NCBI GenBank assembly: GCA_020845575.1
Contig: JADLFL010000024.1
Coordinates: 51,421-115,420 of the forward strand
DNA: 64,000 bases
DNA from: Acidobacteriota bacterium
GTDB lineage: Bacteria > Acidobacteriota > Vicinamibacteria > Vicinamibacterales > Vicinamibacteraceae
Direction of reading: 5' to 3'
This document shows positions 1 through 59,055 of the stretch, piece after piece (the stretch's first letter is position 1; each line of letters begins with the position of its first letter). The notes under the pieces were generated by a model that did no database searches, was not told the DNA's origin, and worked only from the letters and a program-made list of their open reading frames with translations. A program made the position numbers and the translations under genes.

Positions 1-1698
1 ACCCGGCAGCCCGCGCGCTTCGGCAAGCGCGGGAGCCAGTTGACCCACCCACCCCACGTCCACGCGCCCGCCGGCATCCGCCCTGACGACGCGCGCTGCG
101 CGGCCCGGCATGAACGCGGCGTGATCGGCCGGCTCGAGCGTGAGGGGCGTGCGAAGGACGTCGCCGATGCGTGCGACGACGCCGATGACGTCGTACACGT
201 CCACGGGACGGCCACTGCGGCTCCAGTGTTCAGGCGCGGCGGCGCCCGTCCACGCGACTGCCACGCCATGCGTCTCGCCATGCGCGTCGGTGAAGCGCGT
301 GCCGAGTTCGAACAGCCGGATGTCGCGATGTTCGCGCCGGCGATTGTGCGAGAGACTGTCGATCACGCCCGGCAGCACCCAGGGCCGCAGGACGGCGAAG
401 AGCTCCGACAGCGGATTCGCGATGGCGATCGGTGCCGCGTCGAACGGCGCCGCCGCGGCCCGCTCGATGAACGTGAACGTCACGGCCTCCGCGAAGCCGG
501 CGCCCACGAGCATGTCGCGTACGCGCGCGTCGCGCACCAGACGCGGCGCCGTCCGGGCGGGCGGAGCAGCGAGCGGCGGGAACGTCACGGGCAGGCGGTC
601 GTAGCCAGCACACCGCGCGACTTCCTCGATGAGGTCTTCTTCGCGCGTTACGTCCCCGCGCCATCCGGGGATGGTCGCGATCCACGCAGGTCCGTTCGCG
701 TCATCGTCGTGCGCGAGGCCGAAGCCGAGCGACGTCAGGATCGACTCGACTTCCGCAACGGGCACCTCCATGCCGAGCACGCGCGCGATGCGTGGCCATC
801 GCAGGCGCACGGTGCGCAGCGCAAGTGCCGGCGTCCCCGCGACCACGTCGCCGCCACGCACGCGACCGGCGCCGATCTGCGTCAGTACCTCCACGGCGCG
901 GTGCAGGGCACGCAGCGGCATCGAGGGATCGGTACCGCGCTCGAAGCGATACGAGGCCTCGGTCGAGAGCTGGAGCCGGCGTCGGGTGCGGCGCACCTGC
1001 GCAGGCTCGAAGTACGCACTTTCGAGTGCGATGGTTTTCGTTGTCGCGCCGATCTCGGTCGCGTCACCGCCCATCACGCCCGCCACCGCCTGCGCGCCGG
1101 CATCGTCGGCGATCACCAGCATGTCGTCGGCGAGCGTGCGCGCCACGCCGTCGAGCGTGGTCAGGCGTTCGCCCGCGTGCGCGGTGCGCACGGTCAGCTG
1201 ATGTCCGGCGATCGTGTCGTAGTCGAACGCGTGCAGCGGCTGGTTCAGCTCGAGCAGCACGTAGTTGGTGACGTCGACGATGTTGTTGATCGAGCGGACG
1301 CCGGCGAGCGTGAGTCGCTCGACGAGCCAGGTGGGGGAGGGGCCCACCGTGACGTCCATCATCGCCGCGCAATAGAGCGGGCACAGATCCGCGCGTTCGA
1401 CAGACACACGCAGCGCGGCGCCGTCGTTCTGCGCGACGCGTGCCTCGGCAACCGCCGGCACGGGCACGCGCAGCGGCACGCCGTAGCGCACCGCCACTTC
1501 GCGCGCCATGCCGAGCACGCTCAGGCAGTCGGGCCTGTTCGCGGTGATCTCGAAGTCGATCACGGCATCGTCTGGCCGCCCCTCGACGGAATCGACGGCG
1601 GCGACCTCGAACCCGCGCATGGAGAGATCGTTTGCGAGCTGGTCGATGGTGACCGGCACGTCGACGTAGTCACGCAACCACGAGACGAGGATTCTCAC
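1..1698 (-). CDS. pheT: Phenylalanyl-tRNA synthetase beta subunit, 3' end outside window
   Basis: Beta chain of the cytoplasmic alpha2-beta2 enzyme that charges tRNA-Phe. The reverse strand reads from a GTG whose last two bases overlap the pheS TGA stop, giving tight coupling. The N-terminus (MRILVSWLRDYVDV) and the B3/B4-type motifs NNIVDVTNYV and QPLHAFDYD identify it. The usual tRNA_bind (OB-fold) insert after the first 40 residues is absent: GFEV is followed almost at once by FEITANRPDCLSVLG. This is therefore a short form of the family. About 566 codons are visible and the C-terminal part, including the anticodon-binding domain, lies left of the window. Confidence 0.93.
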   Translation of the reverse strand, partial: MRILVSWLRDYVDVPVTIDQLANDLSMRGFEVAAVDSVEGRPDDAVIDFEITANRPDCLSVLGMAREVAVRYGVPLRVPVPAVAEARVAQNDGAALRVSVERADLCPLYCAAMMDVTVGPSPTWLVERLTLAGVRSINNIVDVTNYVLLELNQPLHAFDYDTIAGHQLTVRTAHAGERLTTLDGVARTLADDMLVIADDAGAQAVAGVMGGDATEIGATTKTIALESAYFEPAQVRRTRRRLQLSTEASYRFERGTDPSMPLRALHRAVEVLTQIGAGRVRGGDVVAGTPALALRTVRLRWPRIARVLGMEVPVAEVESILTSLGFGLAHDDDANGPAWIATIPGWRGDVTREEDLIEEVARCAGYDRLPVTFPPLAAPPARTAPRLVRDARVRDMLVGAGFAEAVTFTFIERAAAAPFDAAPIAIANPLSELFAVLRPWVLPGVIDSLSHNRRREHRDIRLFELGTRFTDAHGETHGVAVAWTGAAAPEHWSRSGRPVDVYDVIGVVARIGDVLRTPLTLEPADHAAFMPGRAARVVRADAGGRVDVGWVGQLAPALAEARGLPG

Positions 1699-2819
1699 GA
1701 CGCGAACTGCTCCAGGAAGCGCAGGTCGTTCTCGTAGAACGCCCTGATGTCGTCAACGCGATGGGCGAGCAGCGCGAGACGCTCGATGCCCATGCCGAAC
1801 GCGAAGCCCGTGTAGCGCTCCGGATCGATGCCCACGGCCTCGAACACCGACGGGTGCACCATCCCGCTGCCGCCGATCTCGATCCAGCCCGTGCGCTTGC
1901 ACATCGGACAGCCGGAGCCGAAGCACGACTGACAGCCGACGAAGACTTCCGCGCTCGGCTCCGTGTACGGGAAGAAGCTCGGCTTGAACATGATGGGCGT
2001 CTTCGGATCGAAGAACTCGCGCGCGAACCCGAGCAGCGTGCCCTTGAGGTCGGCCATCGTCACGTGCTCACCGACGACGAGACCCTCGACCTGCTGGAAC
2101 ATCGGCGTGTGCGTGAGATCGAGGCTGTCGCGCCGATACACCCGCCCCGGCGCGATGATGCGCACGGGTGCCCCATGCGCCTCCATGTACCGCACCTGCA
2201 CCGCCGACGTATGCGTCCGCAGCAACGTCGCCGGCCGCGGCTGTCCCCCGGGGTGCCCGTTGCCGGTTGCCGGTTGCCGTCCGCCCGTGCTGTCCGGTTG
2301 CCGGTTGCCGGTTGCCGGTTGCCGGCTGAACGCCCTTTCCAGATACAGCGTGTCCTGCGCATCGCGGGCCGGATGGTCCGCGGGCATGTTCAGCGCCTCG
2401 AAGGTGTGCCAGTCGTCTTCGGTCTCGGGGCCGTCGACGATCTCGTAGCCCATGCGCGTGAAGATGCGCTCGATGCGTTCGCGCATCGCGTTGAGCGGAT
2501 GACGCGAGCCGGCGGGCAGTGGCCGTGCGGCCAGCGTGAGATCGAGGCCCGGCGTCCGCGTGCCGCTGGCCACTGTCTCGCGGCGCGCCTCGAGGCCGGC
2601 TTCCACGGCCTGCTTCAGTTCGTTGGCCAGCCTGCCGATCTCGCGCTTCTGGTCGACGGGCGCCCTGGCGATCTCGCCGTACAAGGCCGTGACGAGCCCG
2701 TGCTTGCGGCTCAGGAAGCGATCGCGAAGGGCCTGAAGGTCGGCAGCCGTCGCCACCGCCGCCAGTGCGGTGTCGAACTCGGCCCGCAGCGCAGCCACGG
2801 AAACGGAGAGATCGGACAT
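1695..2819 (-). CDS. pheS: Phenylalanyl-tRNA synthetase alpha subunit with repeat-derived insert
   Basis: Catalytic chain of PheRS, 374 aa from the ATG at 2819 (MSDLSVSV). An N-terminal coiled coil is followed by the class II core, with LLRTHTSAVQVR, FQQVEGLVVG, PSFFPYTEPSAEV and the C-terminal FGMGIERLALL motifs all present. Between DTLYLE and LLRTHTS, where the family normally has a few residues, this protein has about 35 extra residues (roughly 163-197), containing two copies of RQPATGN. These are encoded by a 7-bp tandem repeat. The frame is preserved and all motifs are intact, so the gene is probably functional. Upstream is a terminator-like hairpin; downstream pheT overlaps. Confidence 0.96.
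   Translation of the reverse strand: MSDLSVSVAALRAEFDTALAAVATAADLQALRDRFLSRKHGLVTALYGEIARAPVDQKREIGRLANELKQAVEAGLEARRETVASGTRTPGLDLTLAARPLPAGSRHPLNAMRERIERIFTRMGYEIVDGPETEDDWHTFEALNMPADHPARDAQDTLYLERAFSRQPATGNRQPDSTGGRQPATGNGHPGGQPRPATLLRTHTSAVQVRYMEAHGAPVRIIAPGRVYRRDSLDLTHTPMFQQVEGLVVGEHVTMADLKGTLLGFAREFFDPKTPIMFKPSFFPYTEPSAEVFVGCQSCFGSGCPMCKRTGWIEIGGSGMVHPSVFEAVGIDPERYTGFAFGMGIERLALLAHRVDDIRAFYENDLRFLEQFAS
2253..2326. repeat. Heptamer tandem repeat (CCGGTTG units) inside pheS
   Basis: Two blocks of about three and four 7-bp units (CCGGTTG on the plus strand) separated by a short linker, fully inside pheS. Three units make 21 bp, which reads as the 7-residue RQPATGN repeat. The same unit occurs at eight other places in the window, mostly between genes. 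Confidence 0.9.
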
Positions 2820-2831
2820 GGGGTCCACACG

Positions 2832-2866
2832 AAAAACGGGGGCGCGCCCGCGAAGGCGGCCCCCGT
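2832..2866 (-). terminator. Hairpin with U-tract between rplT and pheS (terminator or attenuator)
   Basis: On the minus strand an 8-bp perfect stem (ACGGGGGC paired with GCCCCCGT, positions 2859-2866 and 2836-2843), with further inner pairing, is followed directly by TTTTT (2836-2832). It lies in the 71-nt gap between rplT and pheS, so it can end or attenuate the ribosomal-protein transcript before pheST. No Phe-rich leader peptide was seen. Confidence 0.7.
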
Positions 2867-2890
2867 GGAATTTCAGAACGTTTGCAATTG

Positions 2891-3259
2891 CTAAGCGTTC
2901 TGCTGCTTGAGGGCGTCCTTGGCGCGGGTGGTCAGCGCCGCAAACGCCGCGGGCTCGCTCACGGCGAGCGTGGCGAGCATCTTGCGGTCCACCGCCACGC
3001 CTGCACGCGTGAGGCCGGCGATGAACTGCGAGTAGCTGATCCCCTGCTGGCGCGCCGCGGCGTTGATGCGGATGATCCACAGCCGGCGGAAATCGCGCTT
3101 CTTGCGGCGACGGCCGACAAACGCGCTCTTGAGTGCGCGGTCCACCGCCTCCTTGGCAAAGCGGTACAGCTTGCTCTTGTTGGCGTAGTACCCCTTGGCA
3201 AGGGTCAACAACTTTTCGCGCTTCGCACGGCGCACCGTGCCACGCTTCACTCTTGGCAT
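2891..3259 (-). CDS. rplT: 50S ribosomal protein L20
   Basis: Binds 23S rRNA early in large-subunit assembly. 122 aa, the normal length, starting MPRVKRGTVRRAKREK, with the conserved GYYANKSKLYRFAKEAVDRA and RRLWIIRINAAARQQG segments. Strongly basic N-terminal half. It lies in the usual infC-rpmI-rplT order, but 170 nt downstream of rpmI because a palindromic repeat element occupies the gap. In other bacteria L20 or IF3 autoregulates this operon; no L20-binding pseudoknot was identified here. Confidence 0.97.
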   Translation of the reverse strand: MPRVKRGTVRRAKREKLLTLAKGYYANKSKLYRFAKEAVDRALKSAFVGRRRKKRDFRRLWIIRINAAARQQGISYSQFIAGLTRAGVAVDRKMLATLAVSEPAAFAALTTRAKDALKQQNA

Positions 3260-3318
3260 CGTCTTCTCCGCAGCCTCGGGGCGGCGCTCAACCGACTTGA
3301 ATCCCGGACCGCTCTACG

Positions 3319-3431
3319 AATGTCGAATGCTGAATGACAAGCCCGATGTCGCTGTCCGAAGGATGGAAGGCCCATTCCCGGCATCGCGGCATTCCCGGCA
3401 TTCATTCATTCGTCATCCTGCATTCGACATT
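3319..3431. repeat. MITE-like element with 20-bp terminal inverted repeats, GAATG family
   Basis: The 20-bp ends 3319-3338 and 3412-3431 are inverted copies matching at 18 positions; the outer 12 bp (AATGTCGAATGC) are perfect. The interior is rich in GAATG/CATTC units. The element fills the gap between rpmI and rplT, and its edge overlaps the rpmI stop codon (TTA on the plus strand at 3430-3432). It has no coding capacity. Similar GAATG units recur near 20315, 27623, 42641 and 58874. Confidence 0.75.
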
Positions 3432-3627
3432 ACTTGTACGGCAGCATCAACTCCAGCTTGCCCTGATCCTGCGCGGAGACGAGCACCGTGCCACGCAGCG
3501 CGCGCTTGCGCTTGGTGGTCTTGCTCGTCAGGATGTGCCGCTTGAACGCGCTGCCGCGCAGGAATTTGCCAGAGGCGGTCCGCTTGAACCGCTTCGAGGC
3601 GCCCTTGTGGGTCTTGAGTTTCGGCAT
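3430..3627 (-). CDS. rpmI: 50S ribosomal protein L35
   Basis: Small basic large-subunit protein of 65 aa, the family's usual length. It starts [20 protein letters not shown] and keeps the [17 protein letters not shown] segment. Start ATG at 3627. It follows infC after 76 nt containing two short GC hairpins (GGGAC/GTCCC and GCGGGC/GCCCGC). The stop codon sits at the edge of a repeat element, but the C-terminus looks normal. Confidence 0.97.
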
Positions 3628-3703
3628 GATCTGACTCGTCTTCGTTACGTGTTGCCGCGGGCCGCGTGAGCCCGCGTGTCAGGGACCTCGTGTCCCCGAA
3701 CCC

Positions 3704-4381
3704 CTAGTCCGGCTCGAGCTCCGTTGCCGCTGCCTGCGCGGCGGCTGCGAGTTCCTCCGGCGTCATCTCGGTGTCGTCGTCGTCGGCCTCGGGGCGCGGC
3801 TCGCGCTCCGGCTTGGACGGCTTCTCCAGCTTCTTGATCCCCGGACGGCCCGACAGGATGGTGTGCATCGTGTTGCCTTCCATCCGCGGGATGTTCTCGG
3901 CCACGGCGATGTCGTTCAACTCGCCGATCAGCCGCTCCAGGATCCGGCGCCCGATCTCCGGGTGCGCGATCTCGCGCCCGCGGAAGAACACCACCGCCTT
4001 GACCTTGTCGCCTTCGTGCAGGAAGCGCTGGATGTTGCGCTTCTTGAAGTCGTAGTCGTGCAGATCGACCTTCGGGCGGAACTTGACCTCCTTCACCTCG
4101 ATGGTCTTCTGGTGCTTGCGGGCCTGCCGCTGCTTCTTCTGCTCGTTGTACTGGTACTTGCCGTAATCGGTGATACGGCAGACCGGCGGCACGGCCGTAG
4201 CGGCGACTTCGACGAGATCCAGGCCCTTCGACCGGGCCAGGGCCACGGCCTGCGCCGGTGCCATGATGCCTAGCTGCGCCCCTGTCTCGTCGATCACCCG
4301 GACCTCGCGCACGCGAATGCGCTCGTTGATCCGGACCCTGTCGTCCCGTCGGGGACCCCGCATGCGATTGTCGAACGCGAT
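3704..4381 (-). CDS. infC: Translation initiation factor IF-3, probable ATC start
   Basis: IF-3 binds the 30S subunit, blocks early 50S joining and proofreads the start codon. The IF3-N domain (RINERIRVREVRVIDETGAQ) and IF3-C domain (KEVKFRPKVDLHDYDFKKRN) are intact, followed by an acidic, Ala-rich tail of about 40 residues. An ATG lies at 4363, but the only good ribosome-binding site, AAGGAGGT at 4386-4393, is 22 nt from it. The in-frame ATC at 4379-4381 lies 4 nt after that site. ATC is therefore the likely start (225 aa, beginning IAFDNRMRGP), in line with the AUU start and autoregulation known for infC elsewhere. thrS lies upstream with 47 nt to the Shine-Dalgarno site. Confidence 0.95.
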   Translation of the reverse strand: MAFDNRMRGPRRDDRVRINERIRVREVRVIDETGAQLGIMAPAQAVALARSKGLDLVEVAATAVPPVCRITDYGKYQYNEQKKQRQARKHQKTIEVKEVKFRPKVDLHDYDFKKRNIQRFLHEGDKVKAVVFFRGREIAHPEIGRRILERLIGELNDIAVAENIPRMEGNTMHTILSGRPGIKKLEKPSKPEREPRPEADDDDTEMTPEELAAAAQAAATELEPD

Positions 4382-4393
4382 AACGACCTCCTT
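4379..4393 (-). promoter_or_regulatory. Perfect Shine-Dalgarno site deciding a non-canonical infC start
   Basis: On the minus strand AAGGAGGT (4393-4386) is followed by CGTT and then ATC (4381-4379). The spacing suits ATC and is too long for the downstream ATG at 4363. IF-3 discriminates against non-canonical starts, so this arrangement would give negative feedback. Confidence 0.75.
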
Positions 4394-4440
4394 GAACGCG
4401 CCCCGTGCCCCGATCCACGATCGGCGGCGCGAAACGCTTC

Positions 4441-6399
4441 CTACACTCCGACCGGCTGTTCCGCCTGCCTGCCCTTGTTCTCGATCTCGGCCGCCGCGTC
4501 GGCGAGGAACTCGCTCACCGACCGGCTCCCCAGATCGCCGCCCTGCCGGCTCCGTACCGCGACCGCGCCGTCGGCCACTTCCTTGTCGCCGACCACCAGC
4601 ATGTACGGCACCTTCTGCAACTGGGCTTCCCGGATCTTGTACCCGATCTTCTCCTGCCGGTCATCAAGCCCCGCGCGCAGGCCCGCGGCCGTGAGCGTGG
4701 CCCGCACTTGCGCGGCATACGCCGCGTGGCGATCCGCGATGGGCAGCACGACGGCCTGCACCGGCGCCAGCCACAGCGGGAACGCTCCGGCGAAATGCTC
4801 GATCAACAGCGCGATGAACCGCTCGAAACTGCCGAAGATCGCCCTGTGGATCACCACGGGCCGATGCTCGGCGTTGTCGGCCCCCACGTACTTCAGGTCG
4901 AAGCGCTCGGGGAGCTGATAGTCGAGCTGAATCGTGGCGCACTGCCACTTGCGGCCGATCGCGTCGGTGACGTCGAAGTCGACCTTCGGCCCGTAGAACG
5001 CGCCGTCGCCTTCGTTGATCGTGTAGGCAAGCCTCGCCGATTCGAGCGCCTGCTTCAACTGCGCTTCGGCGTGATCCCACGTCTCGCGCTGCCCGAGGTA
5101 TTGGTCCGGCCGCGTCGAGAGCTTCACCTCATAGGTCAGCCCGAGGTCGCCGTACACGCGCTGGACCAAGCCGAGCAGCCGGTGGACTTCCTCGCCGATC
5201 TGCTCCTGCGTCACGAAACAGTGCGCATCGTCCTGCGAGAACTGCCGCACGCGCGTGAGTCCGCCGAGCACGCCCGACGCCTCGTTGCGGTGCAGGGCCG
5301 TCTGCTCGTGCAACCGCAGCGGCAGGTCGCGATAGCTCCGCATCTGGCTGGCGAAGACGAGCATGTGCCCGGGGCAGTTCATCGCCTTGAGGGCCATCTC
5401 CTCGCCCTCGGCGGCCTCGAGCGTGAACATGTTGTCGCGGTAGTGGTACCAGTGCCCCGACGTTTCCCACAGCGCCTTGTTGAAGAGCAGCGGGGTCTTC
5501 ACTTCGTCGTAGCCGGCCGGATACAGCACCGCGCGCATGTACTCGGCAAGGCCGTTGTAGAGCACCGTGCCCTTGTGCAGCCAGAACGCCGCACCCGGCG
5601 CCCACGGATGGAACATGAACAGGCCCGTTTCGCGGCCCACCTTGCGGTGGTCGCGCTTCTTGGCCTCTTCGAGCCGCGCCAGATACGCCTGGAGCTCCTT
5701 GTCGGAGAAGAACGCCGTGCCGTAGATGCGCTGCATCGGCTGGTTCTTCGCGTCGCCCTTCCAGTACGCACTCGACGTCGTCGTCAGCGTGAAGGCCTTG
5801 AGGCGGCCCGTCGACGGCACGTGCGGTCCGCGACAGAAGTCGACGAAGGTTTCTCGGTCCTTGATCGTGTAGACCGACACCTCCGCCTGCCCCTGCGTGT
5901 TCTCCTCGATGAGCTGCACCTTGAGCGGCTCGCCACGATCGGCGAAGAAGCGCAGAGCCTCCTCGCGCGGCCACATCTGTCGCTCGAACACCTCGTCGGC
6001 CTGCGCCAGCCGACGCATTTCGGCCTCGATCTTCTCGAGATCCTCAGGGACGAACGGCCGCTCGACCACGAAGTCGTAGTAGAAGCCGGGCGGCTCGTCG
6101 ATGACCGGCCCGATGCCGCACTGCGTGCCCGGGAACAGCCTGGTGACGGCCGCGGCCAGCAGGTGCGCCGTGCTGTGCCGGTAGACCTTCAGGGCGTCTG
6201 GGCCGTCGGCCGTGAGGATCCGGACCCGTGCGTCGCGCGTCAGCGGGTACGACAGGTCCACGATCTCATCGTCCACCTGTGCGGCAAGGGCCACCTTCGC
6301 GAGGCGCGGAGACACGCCCCCCGCCACGTCCCGAACGGGCGTGTCGACAGGAACGGATCGCGTGGATCCATCCGGAAGCGTGACAACGACGGACATCAT
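4441..6399 (-). CDS. thrS: Threonyl-tRNA synthetase
   Basis: Charges tRNA-Thr; class II synthetase with an editing domain. Domains in order: TGS at residues 1-60 (VVVTLPDGSTRSV); the editing/SAD domain with HSTAHLLAAA near residue 75 and FCRGPHVPSTG; the class II core with the zinc-site motif MNCPGHMLVF, ASGVLGGLTRVRQFSQDDAH and GPKVDFDVTDAIGRKWQ; and the C-terminal anticodon-binding domain. The start is ATG 6399 (or the adjacent ATG 6396). A longer frame exists only from a TTG at 6444 and adds no family sequence. 652 aa is normal. It heads the thrS-infC-rpmI-rplT-pheST cluster. Confidence 0.96.
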   Translation of the reverse strand: MMSVVVTLPDGSTRSVPVDTPVRDVAGGVSPRLAKVALAAQVDDEIVDLSYPLTRDARVRILTADGPDALKVYRHSTAHLLAAAVTRLFPGTQCGIGPVIDEPPGFYYDFVVERPFVPEDLEKIEAEMRRLAQADEVFERQMWPREEALRFFADRGEPLKVQLIEENTQGQAEVSVYTIKDRETFVDFCRGPHVPSTGRLKAFTLTTTSSAYWKGDAKNQPMQRIYGTAFFSDKELQAYLARLEEAKKRDHRKVGRETGLFMFHPWAPGAAFWLHKGTVLYNGLAEYMRAVLYPAGYDEVKTPLLFNKALWETSGHWYHYRDNMFTLEAAEGEEMALKAMNCPGHMLVFASQMRSYRDLPLRLHEQTALHRNEASGVLGGLTRVRQFSQDDAHCFVTQEQIGEEVHRLLGLVQRVYGDLGLTYEVKLSTRPDQYLGQRETWDHAEAQLKQALESARLAYTINEGDGAFYGPKVDFDVTDAIGRKWQCATIQLDYQLPERFDLKYVGADNAEHRPVVIHRAIFGSFERFIALLIEHFAGAFPLWLAPVQAVVLPIADRHAAYAAQVRATLTAAGLRAGLDDRQEKIGYKIREAQLQKVPYMLVVGDKEVADGAVAVRSRQGGDLGSRSVSEFLADAAAEIENKGRQAEQPVGV

Positions 6400-13433: not shown

Positions 13434-15142
13434 GGGCGTGGCGGGGAATCGGGACTGGTGGCGGCGACGTCGCATTGCAGCATGCCGTCGCTCACTTGCA
13501 CATGAACGCGATCGCCGGTCGACACGCCAGCCACGCTGCGCACGACGGTCTGGCCCGGTGTGTCCCAGCAGATGGCGTAGCCGCGTGCGAGCGTACGGAG
13601 CGGACTCAGCGCATCGAGCTGACCCGAGAGCGACGACACCCGGCGGTCGCCCGTGTGCAGCGTGCGCGTGAGCGCGGCCAGGCCGCGGCCGATCAGGTGA
13701 TCGACGCGACGGCCAGACTGCGCAACGCGAGCATCGAGGCCCACGCGGGCCAGGCGCTCGCGGCTGGCCTGCAGCCGTGCGTGCGCGGCCGCACGTCGCG
13801 TGGTCATCGCGCTGCGCAGACGATCGTCGATCTGGGTGAGTCGCCTGACGCGCGTCACGAGCTGACGCTGCGGATGCTGCTCGTCGAGCCGCGCGGCAAG
13901 GTCCGCGAGTCGACGCGTGCGGCGCGCGGTGCGCTCACGCCACGCGTGCGCGAGGCGATCGGTGAGCTCCACGCGCAGGCGATCGCGGTGGCGGATCTCG
14001 TCGCGGTAGTGCGCGAAGCCGGGACGGCCTTCGATGCGCAGGAGGCGCGTGCGCTGCCTGTCGAGCCGGCTGCCGAGGAGCAGCGCCATCTGGCGTTGCG
14101 CGCCCGCGAGACGGTCGCGGAAGTCACTGGCCTGGCGCACGACGATCTCGGCGGCCTGTGATGGCGTGGCCGCTCGCACGTCGGCCACGTAGTCGGCCAG
14201 CGTCGTGTCGACTTCATGACCGACCGCGGCAATCACCGGCACGGGTGCCGCCGCGACGGCGCGCGCGACGGTTTCCTCGTTGAACGCCCAGAGGTCCTCG
14301 GTCGATCCACCGCCGCGGCCCACGATGATCACGTCGACGTCGGGTACGCGCGCCACGCGCGCGATCGCCCTCGCGATGTCGACGCTCGCGCCCTCGCCCT
14401 GCACACGGGTCGGCGCGATGACGATGTCGGCGGGCGCGCGGCGGGTGCGCAGCACGCGCAGGATGTCGCGTACGGCAGCGCCGTCGAGCGATGTCACCAC
14501 GCCGATGCGGCGCGGCAGCATCGGCAGAGCTCTCTTGCGTGCCGGGTCGAACAGACCTTCCGCCTGCAGGCGCTTCTTGAGTTGATCGAGCGCGAGCTGA
14601 CGTGCGCCCGCCCCCTTCGGCTCGATGCTGTCGACGATGAGTTGATAGCGGCCGCGGGGGACGTAGACCGAGAGGCGCCCCTTCACGAGCACGTGCAGGC
14701 CGGTGGTCAGCTTGAAGCGCAGGCGCGCGGCGTCCGTCCGCCACAGCACTGCCGACACCTGCGCGCCACCGTCCTTCAGCGTGAAGTAGACGTTGCCCTG
14801 CGATGGGGTGCAGTCGGCGATCTCGCCCTCCACCCAGACGCGTCCGAAGGTGCCTTCGAGCGACTGCCGTACGGCATGCGTGAGCTCGCTGACGGTGTAC
14901 GTGCGCGGCCGGCGCGGCTCCTGTCGCTCGCTCTCGCGCTCGACGAATCCGGTGCCCGGTGCCCGGTGCCCGGTGCCCGATTCACGAGGGCGTTCGGCAG
15001 GTCGCGTGGTCGTTCGTTCGTTTCGGGCACCCACAAGGGGTGCCCCTGCATCTGCCTGACGACCGTCGGGTGCCCCTGCATCCGTCGGACGATTGTCTGG
15101 TGCTGGCTCGTCCTCGAACGGGAGGTCGAAGAGCGAACTCAC
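13430..15142 (-). CDS. xseA: Exodeoxyribonuclease VII large subunit with repeat-built N-terminal extension
   Basis: 570 aa from GTG 15142. The normal XseA begins at YTVSELTHAVRQSLEGTFG (near residue 82), with the OB-fold domain and then the catalytic region: RIGVVTSLDGAAVRDI, VIIVGRGGGSTEDLWAFN, AVGHEVDTTLADYVADVRA. A coiled-coil C-terminal region follows. The first 80 residues are low-complexity and are encoded largely by dispersed repeats: two near-identical DAGAP segments and a GTGHRAP heptapeptide from a CCGGTGC tandem array. The extension is in frame but unlikely to be ancestral. GTGA overlap with the upstream ymdB-like gene. Confidence 0.94.
   Translation of the reverse strand: MSSLFDLPFEDEPAPDNRPTDAGAPDGRQADAGAPLVGARNERTTTRPAERPRESGTGHRAPGTGFVERESERQEPRRPRTYTVSELTHAVRQSLEGTFGRVWVEGEIADCTPSQGNVYFTLKDGGAQVSAVLWRTDAARLRFKLTTGLHVLVKGRLSVYVPRGRYQLIVDSIEPKGAGARQLALDQLKKRLQAEGLFDPARKRALPMLPRRIGVVTSLDGAAVRDILRVLRTRRAPADIVIAPTRVQGEGASVDIARAIARVARVPDVDVIIVGRGGGSTEDLWAFNEETVARAVAAAPVPVIAAVGHEVDTTLADYVADVRAATPSQAAEIVVRQASDFRDRLAGAQRQMALLLGSRLDRQRTRLLRIEGRPGFAHYRDEIRHRDRLRVELTDRLAHAWRERTARRTRRLADLAARLDEQHPQRQLVTRVRRLTQIDDRLRSAMTTRRAAAHARLQASRERLARVGLDARVAQSGRRVDHLIGRGLAALTRTLHTGDRRVSSLSGQLDALSPLRTLARGYAICWDTPGQTVVRSVAGVSTGDRVHVQVSDGMLQCDVAATSPDSPPRP
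14949..14979. repeat. Heptamer tandem repeat (CCGGTGC units) inside xseA
   Basis: Four consecutive CCGGTGC units plus a partial fifth, within codons about 54-65 of xseA. The same unit occurs upstream of the gene at 59082. Confidence 0.9.
15025..15086. repeat. Palindrome and direct repeat inside the 5' end of xseA
   Basis: GGGCACCC (15025-15032) and GGGTGCCC (15038-15045) form a hairpin around a short loop. The segment TGCCCCTGCAT at 15041 recurs at 15071. On the coding strand these give the duplicated DAGAP residues of XseA. Confidence 0.7.
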
Positions 15143-16374: not shown

Positions 16375-16397
16375 CCCGCGATGATCGCACAAAGAGA

Positions 16398-16431
16398 CCG
16401 GCAACCGGCAATGGGCAACCGGCAACCGGCC
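16398..16431. repeat. Heptamer tandem repeat (GGCAACC units) upstream of the minus-strand hsp20
   Basis: About five CCGGCAA-type heptamers with one degenerate unit (CAATGGG), within the 341-bp gap between the divergent hsp20 genes. Confidence 0.85.
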
Positions 16432-17168: not shown

Positions 17169-17199
17169 CCAGATTGCAGGAGGGCCGGACTGGTTCAGC

Positions 17200-17216
17200 G
17201 GTTGCCGGTTGCCGGC
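17200..17216. repeat. Heptamer tandem repeat flanked by TTCAG/CTGAA
   Basis: Two and a half GTTGCCG units between hsp20 and the next gene. The array is bordered by TTCAG on the left and CTGAA on the right. The right border GGCTGAAC matches the border of the pheS array. Confidence 0.75.
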
Positions 17217-32695: not shown

Positions 32696-32727
32696 CCGGC
32701 AACCGGCAACGGGCAACGGGCAACCGG
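32696..32727. repeat. Heptamer tandem repeat (GGCAACC units) between divergent xylB and esterase genes
   Basis: About four CCGGCAA/CGGGCAA units just upstream of the xylB -10-like box. Confidence 0.8.
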
Positions 32728-34102: not shown

Positions 34103-34142
34103 CCGGTGGCCGGTTGCCCACTGCCGGTTGCCGGTTGCCGGT
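34103..34142. repeat. Heptamer tandem repeat (CCGGTTG units) before a Gfo/Idh/MocA gene
   Basis: CCGGTGG, CCGGTTG, CCCACTG, CCGGTTG, CCGGTTG, CCGG in phase. TTGCCG at its right edge followed 18 nt later by TATGCT (34158) could act as a promoter. Confidence 0.85.
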
Positions 34143-56137: not shown

Positions 56138-56171
56138 CCGGCAACCGGCAACCCGGCAACGGGCAACCGGC
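56138..56171. repeat. Heptamer tandem repeat (CCGGCAA units) after the terminator
   Basis: Four to five units, one with an extra C (ACCCGGCAA), directly abutting the terminator. Confidence 0.85.
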
Positions 56172-56233: not shown

Positions 56234-56259
56234 CCGGTTGCCGGTTGCCGGTTGCCGGT
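56234..56259. repeat. Heptamer tandem repeat (CCGGTTG units) upstream of the SUOX-like gene
   Basis: Three CCGGTTG units and a partial fourth, inverted relative to the array at 56138. It ends 6 nt before a TACACT -10 box. Confidence 0.9.
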
Positions 56260-58260: not shown

Positions 58261-58900
58261 TCGCGCGCTCACCGTCGCGCTCCGGCAACGCAGCCCGATC
58301 CCGCTCGACGTCGCCTTCGGCGTGGAGCCGGGCGAGGTGCTGGCGTTGTTCGGCCCGTCGGGCAGCGGCAAGACGACGGTCCTGCGGTCGATCGCCGGGT
58401 TGTACACACCGGCATCGACGCTCGTGCGTTACGGAACCGACGTGTGGTCGGACACGACGGCTGGCGTCCATGTGCCAGTCCACCTCCGCCGGCTCGGCTT
58501 CGTGCCGCAGGACGCGGCCCTGTTTCCGCACCTCGGCGTCGTCGACAACGTGACGATCGCGCTTCTGCACCTGCCGCGCGCGGAGCGCCGCGCCCGTGCG
58601 ATCGACGTGCTGGAGCAGGTACACCTGTCGCACAGGCTGGGTCGCCGGCCTGCCGATCTGTCTGGCGGCGAGCGCCAGCGCCTCGCCCTGGCTCGCGCCC
58701 TGGCGCGCAACCCGCAGGTGCTGCTGCTCGACGAACCCTTTGCCGCCCTCGACCGTCGTCTTCGTCTGGCTCTCCACGCCGAACTGGCCGAGGTGCGCCG
58801 CACCCTCGACGTCCCGATCGTCCTGGTCACGCACGACCAGGACGACGTGACCCGCATGGCCGACAGGGTGGTGGAATGCCGAATGACGAATGACGAATGA
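58253..58900 (+). CDS. modC: Molybdate ABC transporter ATP-binding protein lacking the C-terminal TOBE domain
   Basis: 215 aa from GTG 58253. Walker A GPSGSGKTT (near residue 35), Q-loop FVPQDAALFPH, signature LSGGERQRLALARAL, Walker B VLLLDEPFAALD, and switch His in VLVTHDQDD. Ordinary ModC has about 350 residues with a molybdate-sensing TOBE domain. Here the protein stops right after the nucleotide-binding domain, and its last codons (ECRMTNDE) are the GAATGAC heptamer repeat. The array seems to have replaced or cut off the C-terminus; transport could still work without allosteric control. Confidence 0.9.
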   Translation: MGDRALTVALRQRSPIPLDVAFGVEPGEVLALFGPSGSGKTTVLRSIAGLYTPASTLVRYGTDVWSDTTAGVHVPVHLRRLGFVPQDAALFPHLGVVDNVTIALLHLPRAERRARAIDVLEQVHLSHRLGRRPADLSGGERQRLALARALARNPQVLLLDEPFAALDRRLRLALHAELAEVRRTLDVPIVLVTHDQDDVTRMADRVVECRMTNDE

Positions 58901-58908
58901 CGAATGAC
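58874..58908. repeat. Heptamer tandem repeat (GAATGAC)4 plus GAATGCC at the modC 3' end
   Basis: Five adjacent 7-bp units: GAATGCC, then four perfect GAATGAC. The modC stop codon lies inside the array (58898-58900). Confidence 0.95.
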
Positions 58909-58973
58909 GGGGCTCGGCCTTCGGTTCCTCGAACGCCGGGCAACGCGTGGGCGGCTCGTCCAACCCCACCTCG

Positions 58974-59055
58974 TAGGGGCGACCCTTGTGGTCGCCCGGC
59001 CCGTCGCCGTCTGTCCGGTGCCCGGCCGTCCGGCGCCCGGTGCCCGGTGCCCGGA
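58974..59055. repeat. Palindrome and CCGGTGC heptamer cluster before the SUMF1-like gene
   Basis: A GGGGCGACC/GGTCGCCC-type palindrome near 58975-58997 is followed by CCGGTGC-type heptamers at 59014-59055. With the modC array at 58874 this makes a 180-bp stretch built mostly of repeats. Confidence 0.75.

What the first reader, a model, noticed from the sequence alone, without database searches (positions are those of the whole stretch)
2253..2326. Repeat array tolerated inside the essential pheS gene
PheS carries about 35 extra residues, including two RQPATGN heptapeptides, between DTLYLE and LLRTHTS. The residues come directly from the heptamer repeat. Gain or loss of one 7-bp unit would shift the frame of an essential enzyme, so only changes by three units are viable. 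It is a clean example of repeat DNA becoming a protein insert.
Basis: partly seen in the sequence, partly recalled or inferred. Interest (0 to 1): 0.72.

Follow-up and report, generated by a model that had tools for sequence, protein, structure and literature searches.

The report
Roaming heptamer repeat inside PheS loop
In this relative of the bacterium Luteitalea, the extra stretch in the enzyme PheS is made of two copies of a 32-letter repeat, itself built from a seven-letter word and scattered through the genome; it was likely copied into a loop that is predicted to be floppy, and a sister genus has a different seven-letter repeat of its own in the same loop.

Summary
In detail: PheS (window 1698-2819, minus strand) has a heptamer-derived loop (residues 161-198, two RQPATGN peptides). 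The explanation changes. (1) The array is two direct copies of a dispersed ~32-bp element, CCGG(CAACCGG)4, joined by a 13-nt linker. Of 55 sampled copies 32 stand alone by a strict test. The element-linker-element block recurs 12.4 kb away. (2) The site is a length-variable loop (8-57 residues in 120 homologues), non-repetitive and 24 residues long in all four same-genus relatives, so the net gain is about 14 residues, not 35. (3) The element also sits in UvrC and an Omp85 protein of this genome. A sister genus (G005) has a different heptamer, GAGGTTC, in the same PheS loop while its congener has none; UvrC loops show 7-bp periodicity in 13 of 21 species, with different units. Between genes, copies sit at gene edges and point into the spacer, as reported for Xanthomonas and Nostoc heptamers. 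I call it a new variant of that known kind. No mover was found: Y1 transposase is absent from this genome and RVT_1 from the densest one. In G006 and G001 the UvrC-loop unit was not found elsewhere in 200 kb, which weakens the wider turnover idea.

The parts
1698..2819 (-). pheS, phenylalanine--tRNA ligase subunit alpha, 374 aa (start codon as chosen here)
   Evidence: TIGR00468 316.3 bits against a cut-off of 237.45; PF01409 and PF02912; frame ends with a stop at 1695-1697
2226..2339 (-). Variable loop of PheS, residues 161-198 (38 aa), between DTLYL and LLRTHT
   Evidence: 24 aa in all four same-genus relatives; 8-57 aa in 120 listed homologues; no secondary structure and low pLDDT in the model
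2294..2325 (-). Element copy 1: perfect 32-bp CCGG(CAACCGG)4
   Evidence: G000:C24:53714-53745, no mismatch to the 32-bp template
2281..2293 (-). 13-nt linker between the two element copies; shared with the block about 12.4 kb upstream on the contig
   Evidence: an 18-mer covering 11 nt of it plus one unit matches exactly at only two places in the genome
2249..2280 (-). Element copy 2: degenerate 32-bp copy (4 mismatches)
   Evidence: G000:C24:53669-53700
14949..14979 (+). Related heptamer array, unit CCGGTGC, intergenic
16397..16430 (+). CCGGCAA element, intergenic
17199..17215 (-). Short CCGGCAA array (17 bp), intergenic
32696..32727 (+). CCGGCAA element, intergenic
34109..34142 (-). CCGGCAA element, overlapping a predicted gene edge by a few bases
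56138..56171 (+). Left arm of an inverted CCGGCAA pair in an intergenic spacer
56234..56259 (-). Right arm of the same inverted pair
59015..59054 (+). CCGGTGC heptamer array, intergenic

Best explanation
The PheS insert consists of two copies of a 32-bp heptamer-built repeat element that is scattered through this genome, and it was likely copied as a block into a length-variable loop that is predicted to be disordered. Shown: the two blocks and linker, the dispersed element, the same block 12.4 kb away, copies in UvrC and an Omp85 protein, the non-repetitive loop in same-genus relatives, and a different heptamer in the same loop of a sister genus. Inferred: the copying step (ectopic recombination or template switching between repeats, or an unidentified factor), later slippage by whole units, and selection that kept only in-frame outcomes in a loop that matters little for catalysis. 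Because 7 is coprime to 3, an array of this unit is translated into the same cyclic heptapeptide (RQPATGN) in all three frames of its strand, without stops, so a copy landing in a tolerant loop costs little provided the total length keeps the frame.
For: Element: of 55 fuzzy 32-bp copies in about 855 kb of G000 (80 kb of it chosen for hits), 42 have no further CAA directly on either side and 32 stand alone by a stricter test, 27 of 42 in the unchosen contigs; variants recur at positions 22, 15, 0, 14 and 8. Shared block: an 18-mer across linker and unit is exact at only 2 places in the genome; with up to 2 mismatches 5 places and 1 reversed-control hit (alignment). Lineage specificity: 166 hits in G000 against 0, 0, 0 and 3 in congeners. 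Site history: 24 aa and no lag-7 signal at p<=0.01 in G001-G004, the closest being G004 at p=0.022. Second hit: G005 has five GAGGTTC units in the same loop; (GAGGTTC)3 has 29 hits in G005 and 0 in G000-G004; its congener G006 has 13 aa and no array there. Other proteins of G000: UvrC with two direct and one inverted copy, Omp85 with three; the Omp85 loop is 63 aa against 9 aa in G001, G002 and G004, the only other loci of 8 that my pattern could read. UvrC loops: lag-7 at p<=0.01 in 13 of 21 species, 0-1 at other lags.
Against: No enzyme or copying event is shown, and the direction of copying between the two blocks is open. Slippage clearly also acts: 23 of 55 copies are continued on one or both sides, and arrays reach 101 bp. 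Only 3 of 30 PheS loops show lag-7 at p<=0.01. The structure model is weak (pTM 0.58, mean pLDDT 76), and low confidence also covers conserved neighbours (model residues 131-145, 148-161, 228-238), so disorder of the insert is not specific evidence.
Confidence: 0.68

Rival explanations
1. In-place microsatellite: the ancestral loop codons, which in congeners hold an ACCGGCGA-like stretch, mutated into a heptamer seed that grew by polymerase slippage.
For: Congeners have such a stretch at this place. In a study cited there, heptamers were the most abundant class of 5-11-nt repeats in most genomes, and slippage over a 7-nt polymerase contact was proposed (passages of PMC4679880 and PMC4692102).
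Against: Two 32-bp blocks with a 13-nt non-heptamer linker that recurs at one other place in the genome; the same unit in 68 arrays of the sampled 855 kb and in UvrC and Omp85 of the same genome, but not in congeners.
Confidence: 0.2
2. The loop repeat is functional, for example a G-quadruplex or hairpin in the pheS mRNA that controls expression or translation speed, and was selected.
For: Related G-rich heptamers of Xanthomonas and Nostoc form quadruplexes in vitro (PMC4692102, abstract and Discussion).
Against: CCGGCAA has only two-G runs; the RNA fold of the insert is not unusual (z -1.55, 16 of 200 shuffles as good); no Rfam match at 1500-4500; congeners lack it; arrays are rare inside genes (8 of 67 in G000 at 91% coding, 6 of 59 in G002; but 8 of 21 in G006).
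Confidence: 0.06
3. The array is an assembly artefact of repeat collapse or chimera.
For: The genome is a 78-contig draft, repeats mislead assemblers, and no reads were available.
Against: The frame is intact over 374 aa; the protein's cluster includes at least one other, longer contig, though I could not see its array; UvrC and Omp85 of the same assembly carry the element in intact frames too.
Confidence: 0.04
4. The elements are moved by a dedicated enzyme of a known kind: a REP-type Y1 transposase, or reverse transcription from an RNA template.
For: Small palindromic repeats in other bacteria are moved by Y1-type transposases (recalled); inverted pairs with fixed polarity would fit mobile ends. 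RVT_1 is present in G000 (2 matches) and G006 (1).
Against: Y1_Tnp (PF01797) has no match in G000, the genome with most CCGGCAA copies. RVT_1 (PF00078) has no match in the single-contig genome G002, which has the densest arrays, and G043 has seven matches but few arrays. Array density is known for only six genomes, and G000 is 95.8% complete.
Confidence: 0.08

Closest known systems
G-rich heptameric repeats (GGGAATC, GGGGA(C/T)T) of Xanthomonas and Nostoc, Rehm et al. 2015, PMC4692102 (abstract, passages and Discussion read)
   Same: Seven-base unit; preferred length of four units; dispersed, mostly intergenic; convergent inverted pairs (70 and 75 cases in two xanthomonads, few in Nostoc); located just downstream of stops on the sense strand or just upstream of starts on the antisense strand, the same rule as found here.
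   Different: Unit here is CCGGCAA without three-G runs; phylum is Acidobacteriota; units differ from species to species; copies lie in loops of conserved proteins, at the same loop with different units in different lineages. That paper reports an intragenic share (7-11% in xanthomonads, more in Nostoc); its main text does not contain the words uvrC or 'amino acid'.
TAACTGA repeats of marine Beggiatoaceae, MacGregor 2015, PMC4679880 (abstract start and passages read)
   Same: Dispersed heptamer arrays of two to six copies, mostly intergenic, some overlapping protein ends; mobility considered; one set lies upstream of pheS.
   Different: That unit has stops in the forward orientation, so it cannot sit inside proteins in that direction; CCGGCAA is stop-free on both strands. 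The pheS case there is upstream, not in the protein.
Tandem repeats of archaeal Borg elements that create disordered protein regions, PMC9879509 (abstract and outline only)
   Same: Repeat DNA in open frames translated into predicted disordered regions; one conserved hotspot is listed as a section title.
   Different: Extrachromosomal archaeal elements; the repeats described there are not a dispersed heptamer family, as far as the abstract shows.
Rickettsia palindromic elements (search listings only; details recalled)
   Same: A dispersed repeat found inside protein-coding genes and translated.
   Different: Those elements are longer palindromes (recalled); here it is a 32-bp heptad block.
REP sequences moved by RAYT (Y1) transposases (recalled)
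   Same: Short, extragenic, often paired in inverted orientation.
   Different: No Y1_Tnp match in G000; the single element is a direct heptad repeat.

Membership tests
G-rich heptameric repeats of the Xanthomonas/Nostoc type | Dispersed tandem heptamers, mostly intergenic | tested here: met
   59 of 67 lag-7 arrays intergenic in a 91%-coding sample of G000; period 7 at 7.9 arrays per 100 kb against 0.3 in shuffles; none in 200 kb of E. coli K-12
G-rich heptameric repeats of the Xanthomonas/Nostoc type | Preferred length of about four units | tested here: met
   32 of 55 CCGGCAA copies stand alone at about 32 bp by the strict test, 42 by a crude one (only copies resembling the 32-bp template were counted); without a template, array lengths cluster at 23-33 in G000 and 28-33 in G002
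G-rich heptameric repeats of the Xanthomonas/Nostoc type | Convergent inverted pairs and placement at gene edges with fixed polarity | tested here: met
   CCGGCAA near pairs in G000: 12 convergent, 0 divergent, 4 direct; three units in G002: 3, 0, 3; side rule 44 of 55 and 34 of 41; any-unit test 42 of 59, 39 of 53, 10 of 13, 5 of 7 in G000, G002, G006, G005, the last two not significant
G-rich heptameric repeats of the Xanthomonas/Nostoc type | Unit GGGNATC / GGGGAYT with three-G runs that form quadruplexes | tested here: not met
   CCGGCAA has two-G runs only. Several UvrC-loop units of relatives (CGGGAGT, CGGGAAT, TGGGGAC) do have them. Hence filed as a variant, not a member
REP / RAYT system | Y1 transposase encoded in the genome | tested here: not met
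   0 PF01797 matches in G000; 4, 2, 0, 2 in G001-G004
Template-copied repeats (RVT_1 reverse transcriptase) | Reverse transcriptase present wherever arrays are dense | tested here: not met
   No RVT_1 match in single-contig genome G002 with 12.0 arrays per 100 kb; reverse transcriptases outside PF00078 not tested
MITE | Terminal inverted repeats, conserved interior, target-site duplication | tested here: inconclusive
   Inverted arms exist but interiors differ between the pairs read; target duplications were not tested
Bacterial PheS (TIGR00468) | Score over the curated cut-off | tested here: met
   316.3 against 237.45 bits

The most novel reading that the evidence does not exclude
Each lineage of this order runs its own heptad element, and the whole set turns over: intergenic edges and a few tolerant protein loops (UvrC above all, also PheS) are emptied and refilled with whichever unit is current. 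That would make these elements a bacterial counterpart of satellite or telomere-like repeats, written outward from gene ends with fixed strand polarity by a copying activity that is neither a Y1 transposase nor an RVT_1 reverse transcriptase, with translated loops of conserved enzymes serving as a fossil record of past units.
Probability: 0.17. Interest if true: 0.82.

Novelty: new variant of a known kind. Interest (0 to 1): 0.56.

Why it matters
It shows a dispersed bacterial DNA repeat written into conserved proteins, and the same PheS loop holding different repeats in two genera of one family. That gives a natural experiment on how proteins accept inserts, and it makes an open question testable: how short heptamer elements spread through a genome and why they keep a fixed orientation to genes. 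If it holds up, the UvrC and PheS loops could be read across many genomes as a record of which repeat was active when.

Tried and rejected
Simple chance: rejected by the reversed-pattern control and shuffles. REP/RAYT and RVT_1 as movers: not supported. RNA fold and Rfam gave nothing. 'Six-frame open' as a special property of the unit: dropped, since 70% of heptamers with four or five G/C are stop-free on both strands. A protein-level heptad test was uninformative for PheS (lag 7 in 3 of 107 loops, but lag 8 also in 3; it missed the query itself) and moderate for UvrC (lag 7 in 19 of 105, other lags 0-5; 8 of 120 loops not found; it missed G000's own UvrC). The PheS loops of G027 and G014 hold other dispersed repeats, not heptamers (22 hits of a 21-mer with up to 2 mismatches, and 3 exact copies of a 22-mer, the loop's own copy counted each time); I picked those two by eye out of 30. 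P0024 looks heptamer-derived, but its DNA was not seen. Telomere-like addition at broken ends is kept only in the novel case. In genome contigs I inspected the loops of only the two best of 80 loci; neither has the array.

Against the turnover idea: the unit of the UvrC loop was not found in two or more exact copies in 200 kb of G006 (CGGGAAT) or of G001 (CGGGAGT), while it was in G000 and G002, and the PheS unit of G005 was in G005. Periods 12 and 15 are also frequent by TRF (4.6 and 7.9 per 100 kb in G000), as expected near codon periodicity but not examined, and in G005 lag-8 arrays outnumber lag-7 (19 to 8).

Limits: gene boundaries come from a home-made codon-usage caller, so starts may be off. 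(first count) included 80 kb, 4 of 40 G000 stretches, chosen because they held hits; searches did not. The UvrC test covered 21 of 23 loci (G009 and G021 missed by the pattern; the G023 match was not UvrC-like). Ten paper searches, of which only named UvrC and PheS, listed no report of heptamer arrays inside PheS or UvrC; I looked at listings, and at passages of two papers and the outline of one.

Full report
What is there. The window's minus strand encodes PheS (1698-2819; TIGR00468 316.3 bits) beside rplT, infC and thrS. Between DTLYL and LLRTHT it carries 38 residues, residues 161-198, DNA 2226-2339. TRF sees 9.9 heptamers at 2254-2325. Read against a 32-bp template, CCGG(CAACCGG)4, the stretch resolves into a perfect copy (2294-2325), a 13-nt linker (2281-2293) and a degenerate copy (2249-2280).

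Is it special to this genome? (CCGGTTG)3 gives 166 overlapping hits in the 4.57-Mb assembly and none for the reversed pattern. Of 162 genomes of the order 5 have any; same-genus G001, G002, G003 and G004 have 0, 0, 0 and 3; the reversed pattern hits in two other genomes, G095 (5) and G045 (1). By TRF, period-7 arrays number 7.9 per 100 kb in G000, 12.0 in G002, 7.0 in G006, 3.0 in G005, 0.5 in G001 and 0.5 in G043, against 0-0.3 in shuffles; periods 6 and 8 are at 0-2.0, while periods 12 and 15 are also common. In 200 kb of E. coli K-12 there is none. The commonest units differ: AACCGGC (31 of 61) in G000, ACTCCCG (11 of 48) in G002, AGGGGCG (5 of 14) in G006.

An element with rules. In about 855 kb of G000 (80 kb of it picked for hits) I found 55 fuzzy 32-bp copies. 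By a crude test 42 are not continued by CAA on either side; by a stricter one 32 stand alone, 14 are continued on one side and 9 on both; in the unchosen contigs 27 of 42 stand alone. Variants in the 32 recur at positions 22, 15, 0, 14 and 8. That points to copies of one element more than to independent slippage, though arrays of up to 101 bp show that slippage acts too. Copies sit at the edges of intergenic regions and point into the spacer: 44 of 55 follow the rule in G000 and 34 of 41 in G002 (p 9e-6 and 3e-5). Neighbouring CCGGCAA copies within 250 bp are convergent 12 times, direct 4 times, divergent never. An any-unit version on unchosen sequence gives 42 of 59, 39 of 53, 10 of 13 and 5 of 7 in G000, G002, G006 and G005; the last two are not significant.

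The loop before the repeat. All four same-genus relatives have 24 residues here, with sequence like EQPFVQGTRATGEPGAGVTLRPAT and no lag-7 signal at p<=0.01, the nearest being G004 at 0.022. In the 120 listed homologues the loop ranges from 8 to 57 residues. The AlphaFold model puts the insert between two strands without secondary structure and with pLDDT under 50 over most of it, but the model is weak (pTM 0.58) and conserved neighbours at 131-145, 148-161 and 228-238 are also under 50 (model numbering is one less than the 374-aa numbering). The 50 listed Foldseek matches are phenylalanyl-tRNA synthetases. So the site is a length-variable loop with or without the repeat.

Where the insert came from. 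An 18-mer covering most of the linker and one unit matches exactly at two places: pheS and G000:C24:41302. With up to two mismatches there are three more places, of which only one (C20) lies beside heptamers, and one reversed-control hit. At C24:41.3 kb the element-linker-element block recurs with different numbers of heptamers, in a spacer whose right end my gene caller overlaps with a predicted gene start. A block shared with its non-heptamer linker is hard to get by slippage alone. The direction and the way of copying are inferred.

It happened more than once. In G005, a different genus of the same family, the PheS loop carries five GAGGTTC units. (GAGGTTC)3 has 29 hits in G005 and none in G000-G004; (CCGGTTG)3 has none in G005. 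G006, the congener of G005, has a 13-residue loop without an array. Two gains of two different units at one loop are the simplest reading. Across 30 PheS loops only 3 show lag-7 at p<=0.01 (G000, G005, G018). Two further loops, chosen by eye, hold other dispersed repeats of their own genomes (G027, G014).

Other proteins. In G000 the element is also in UvrC (two direct copies and one inverted) and in an Omp85/BamA-like protein (three copies). The Omp85 loop has 63 residues against 9 in G001, G002 and G004; four of the eight loci were not readable with my pattern. The UvrC loop after YRKF shows 7-bp periodicity at p<=0.01 in 13 of 21 species with readable loops, against 0 or 1 for any other lag from 4 to 13. 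The units differ (CGGGAGT, CCGGGAA, CAGGGAT, CGGGCTT, CGGGAAT and others), and the inverted arm is plain in G000 and G002 and visible by eye in G010, G017 and G022. In G002 the loop unit is also that genome's commonest heptamer. Against this, CGGGAAT was not found in 200 kb of G006, nor CGGGAGT in 200 kb of G001.

Why a heptamer can live in a protein. Seven is coprime to three, so an array reads as the same cyclic heptapeptide in all three frames of a strand; CCGGCAA gives RQPATGN, seen in PheS, UvrC and Omp85. It has no stops on either strand, but neither do 70% of heptamers of similar G+C, so this is permissive, not distinctive. Arrays are rare inside genes in G000 (8 of 67 at 91% coding) and G002 (6 of 59), less so in G006 (8 of 21).

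What is known. Rehm et al. (PMC4692102; abstract, passages and Discussion read) describe GGGAATC-type heptamers in Xanthomonas and Nostoc with the same preference for four units, the same edge polarity and, in Xanthomonas, the same convergent pairs. This is clearly the nearest kind. CCGGCAA lacks three-G runs, so the quadruplex feature is not met, and I file it as a variant. MacGregor (PMC4679880; passages) describes TAACTGA heptamers whose forward stops keep them out of proteins, one set lying upstream of pheS. Borg elements have tandem repeats that make disordered protein regions (PMC9879509; abstract and outline).

What is unexplained. I found no mover. Y1_Tnp has no match in G000; RVT_1 has none in G002. 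The polarity rule, the near-fixed length and the change of unit between species remain without a mechanism.

Noticed in passing
L098:15764-17719 (G000:C67:95764-97719) and the UvrC loci L216-L238: The UvrC loop after YRKF carries 7-bp periodic DNA in 13 of 21 species with different units, some with an inverted partner arm. It is a stronger case than PheS.
   Followed up: partly
L097:7847-10960 (G000:C72:47847-50960): A BamA/Omp85-like protein has three direct copies of the 32-bp element, giving a 63-residue loop against 9 residues in G001, G002 and G004.
   Followed up: partly
L076:9608-12982 (G000:C12): An AddA-like helicase gene carries an in-frame array of the related unit CCGGGCA.
   Followed up: no
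window 3300-3435 and 58874-58909: A second heptamer type, GAATGAC and related CATTC words, fills some stretches, including one just upstream of rplT; the unit contains a stop codon.
   Followed up: no
G000 stretches L061-L100 and the window: Several other dispersed palindromic repeats are common, for example around GGCCGGCTCTCCGAGCCCGGCC and GGGGCGACGCATGCGTCGCCCC.
   Followed up: no
G027:C281:4676-4696, G002, G005, G000: CCCTTCGACTTCGCTCAGGGC is a dispersed repeat (22 hits in G027, 33 in G002, 11 in G005, 4 in G000, 0 in G014, up to 2 mismatches) and one copy lies inside the PheS loop of G027.
   Followed up: partly
   Followed up: no
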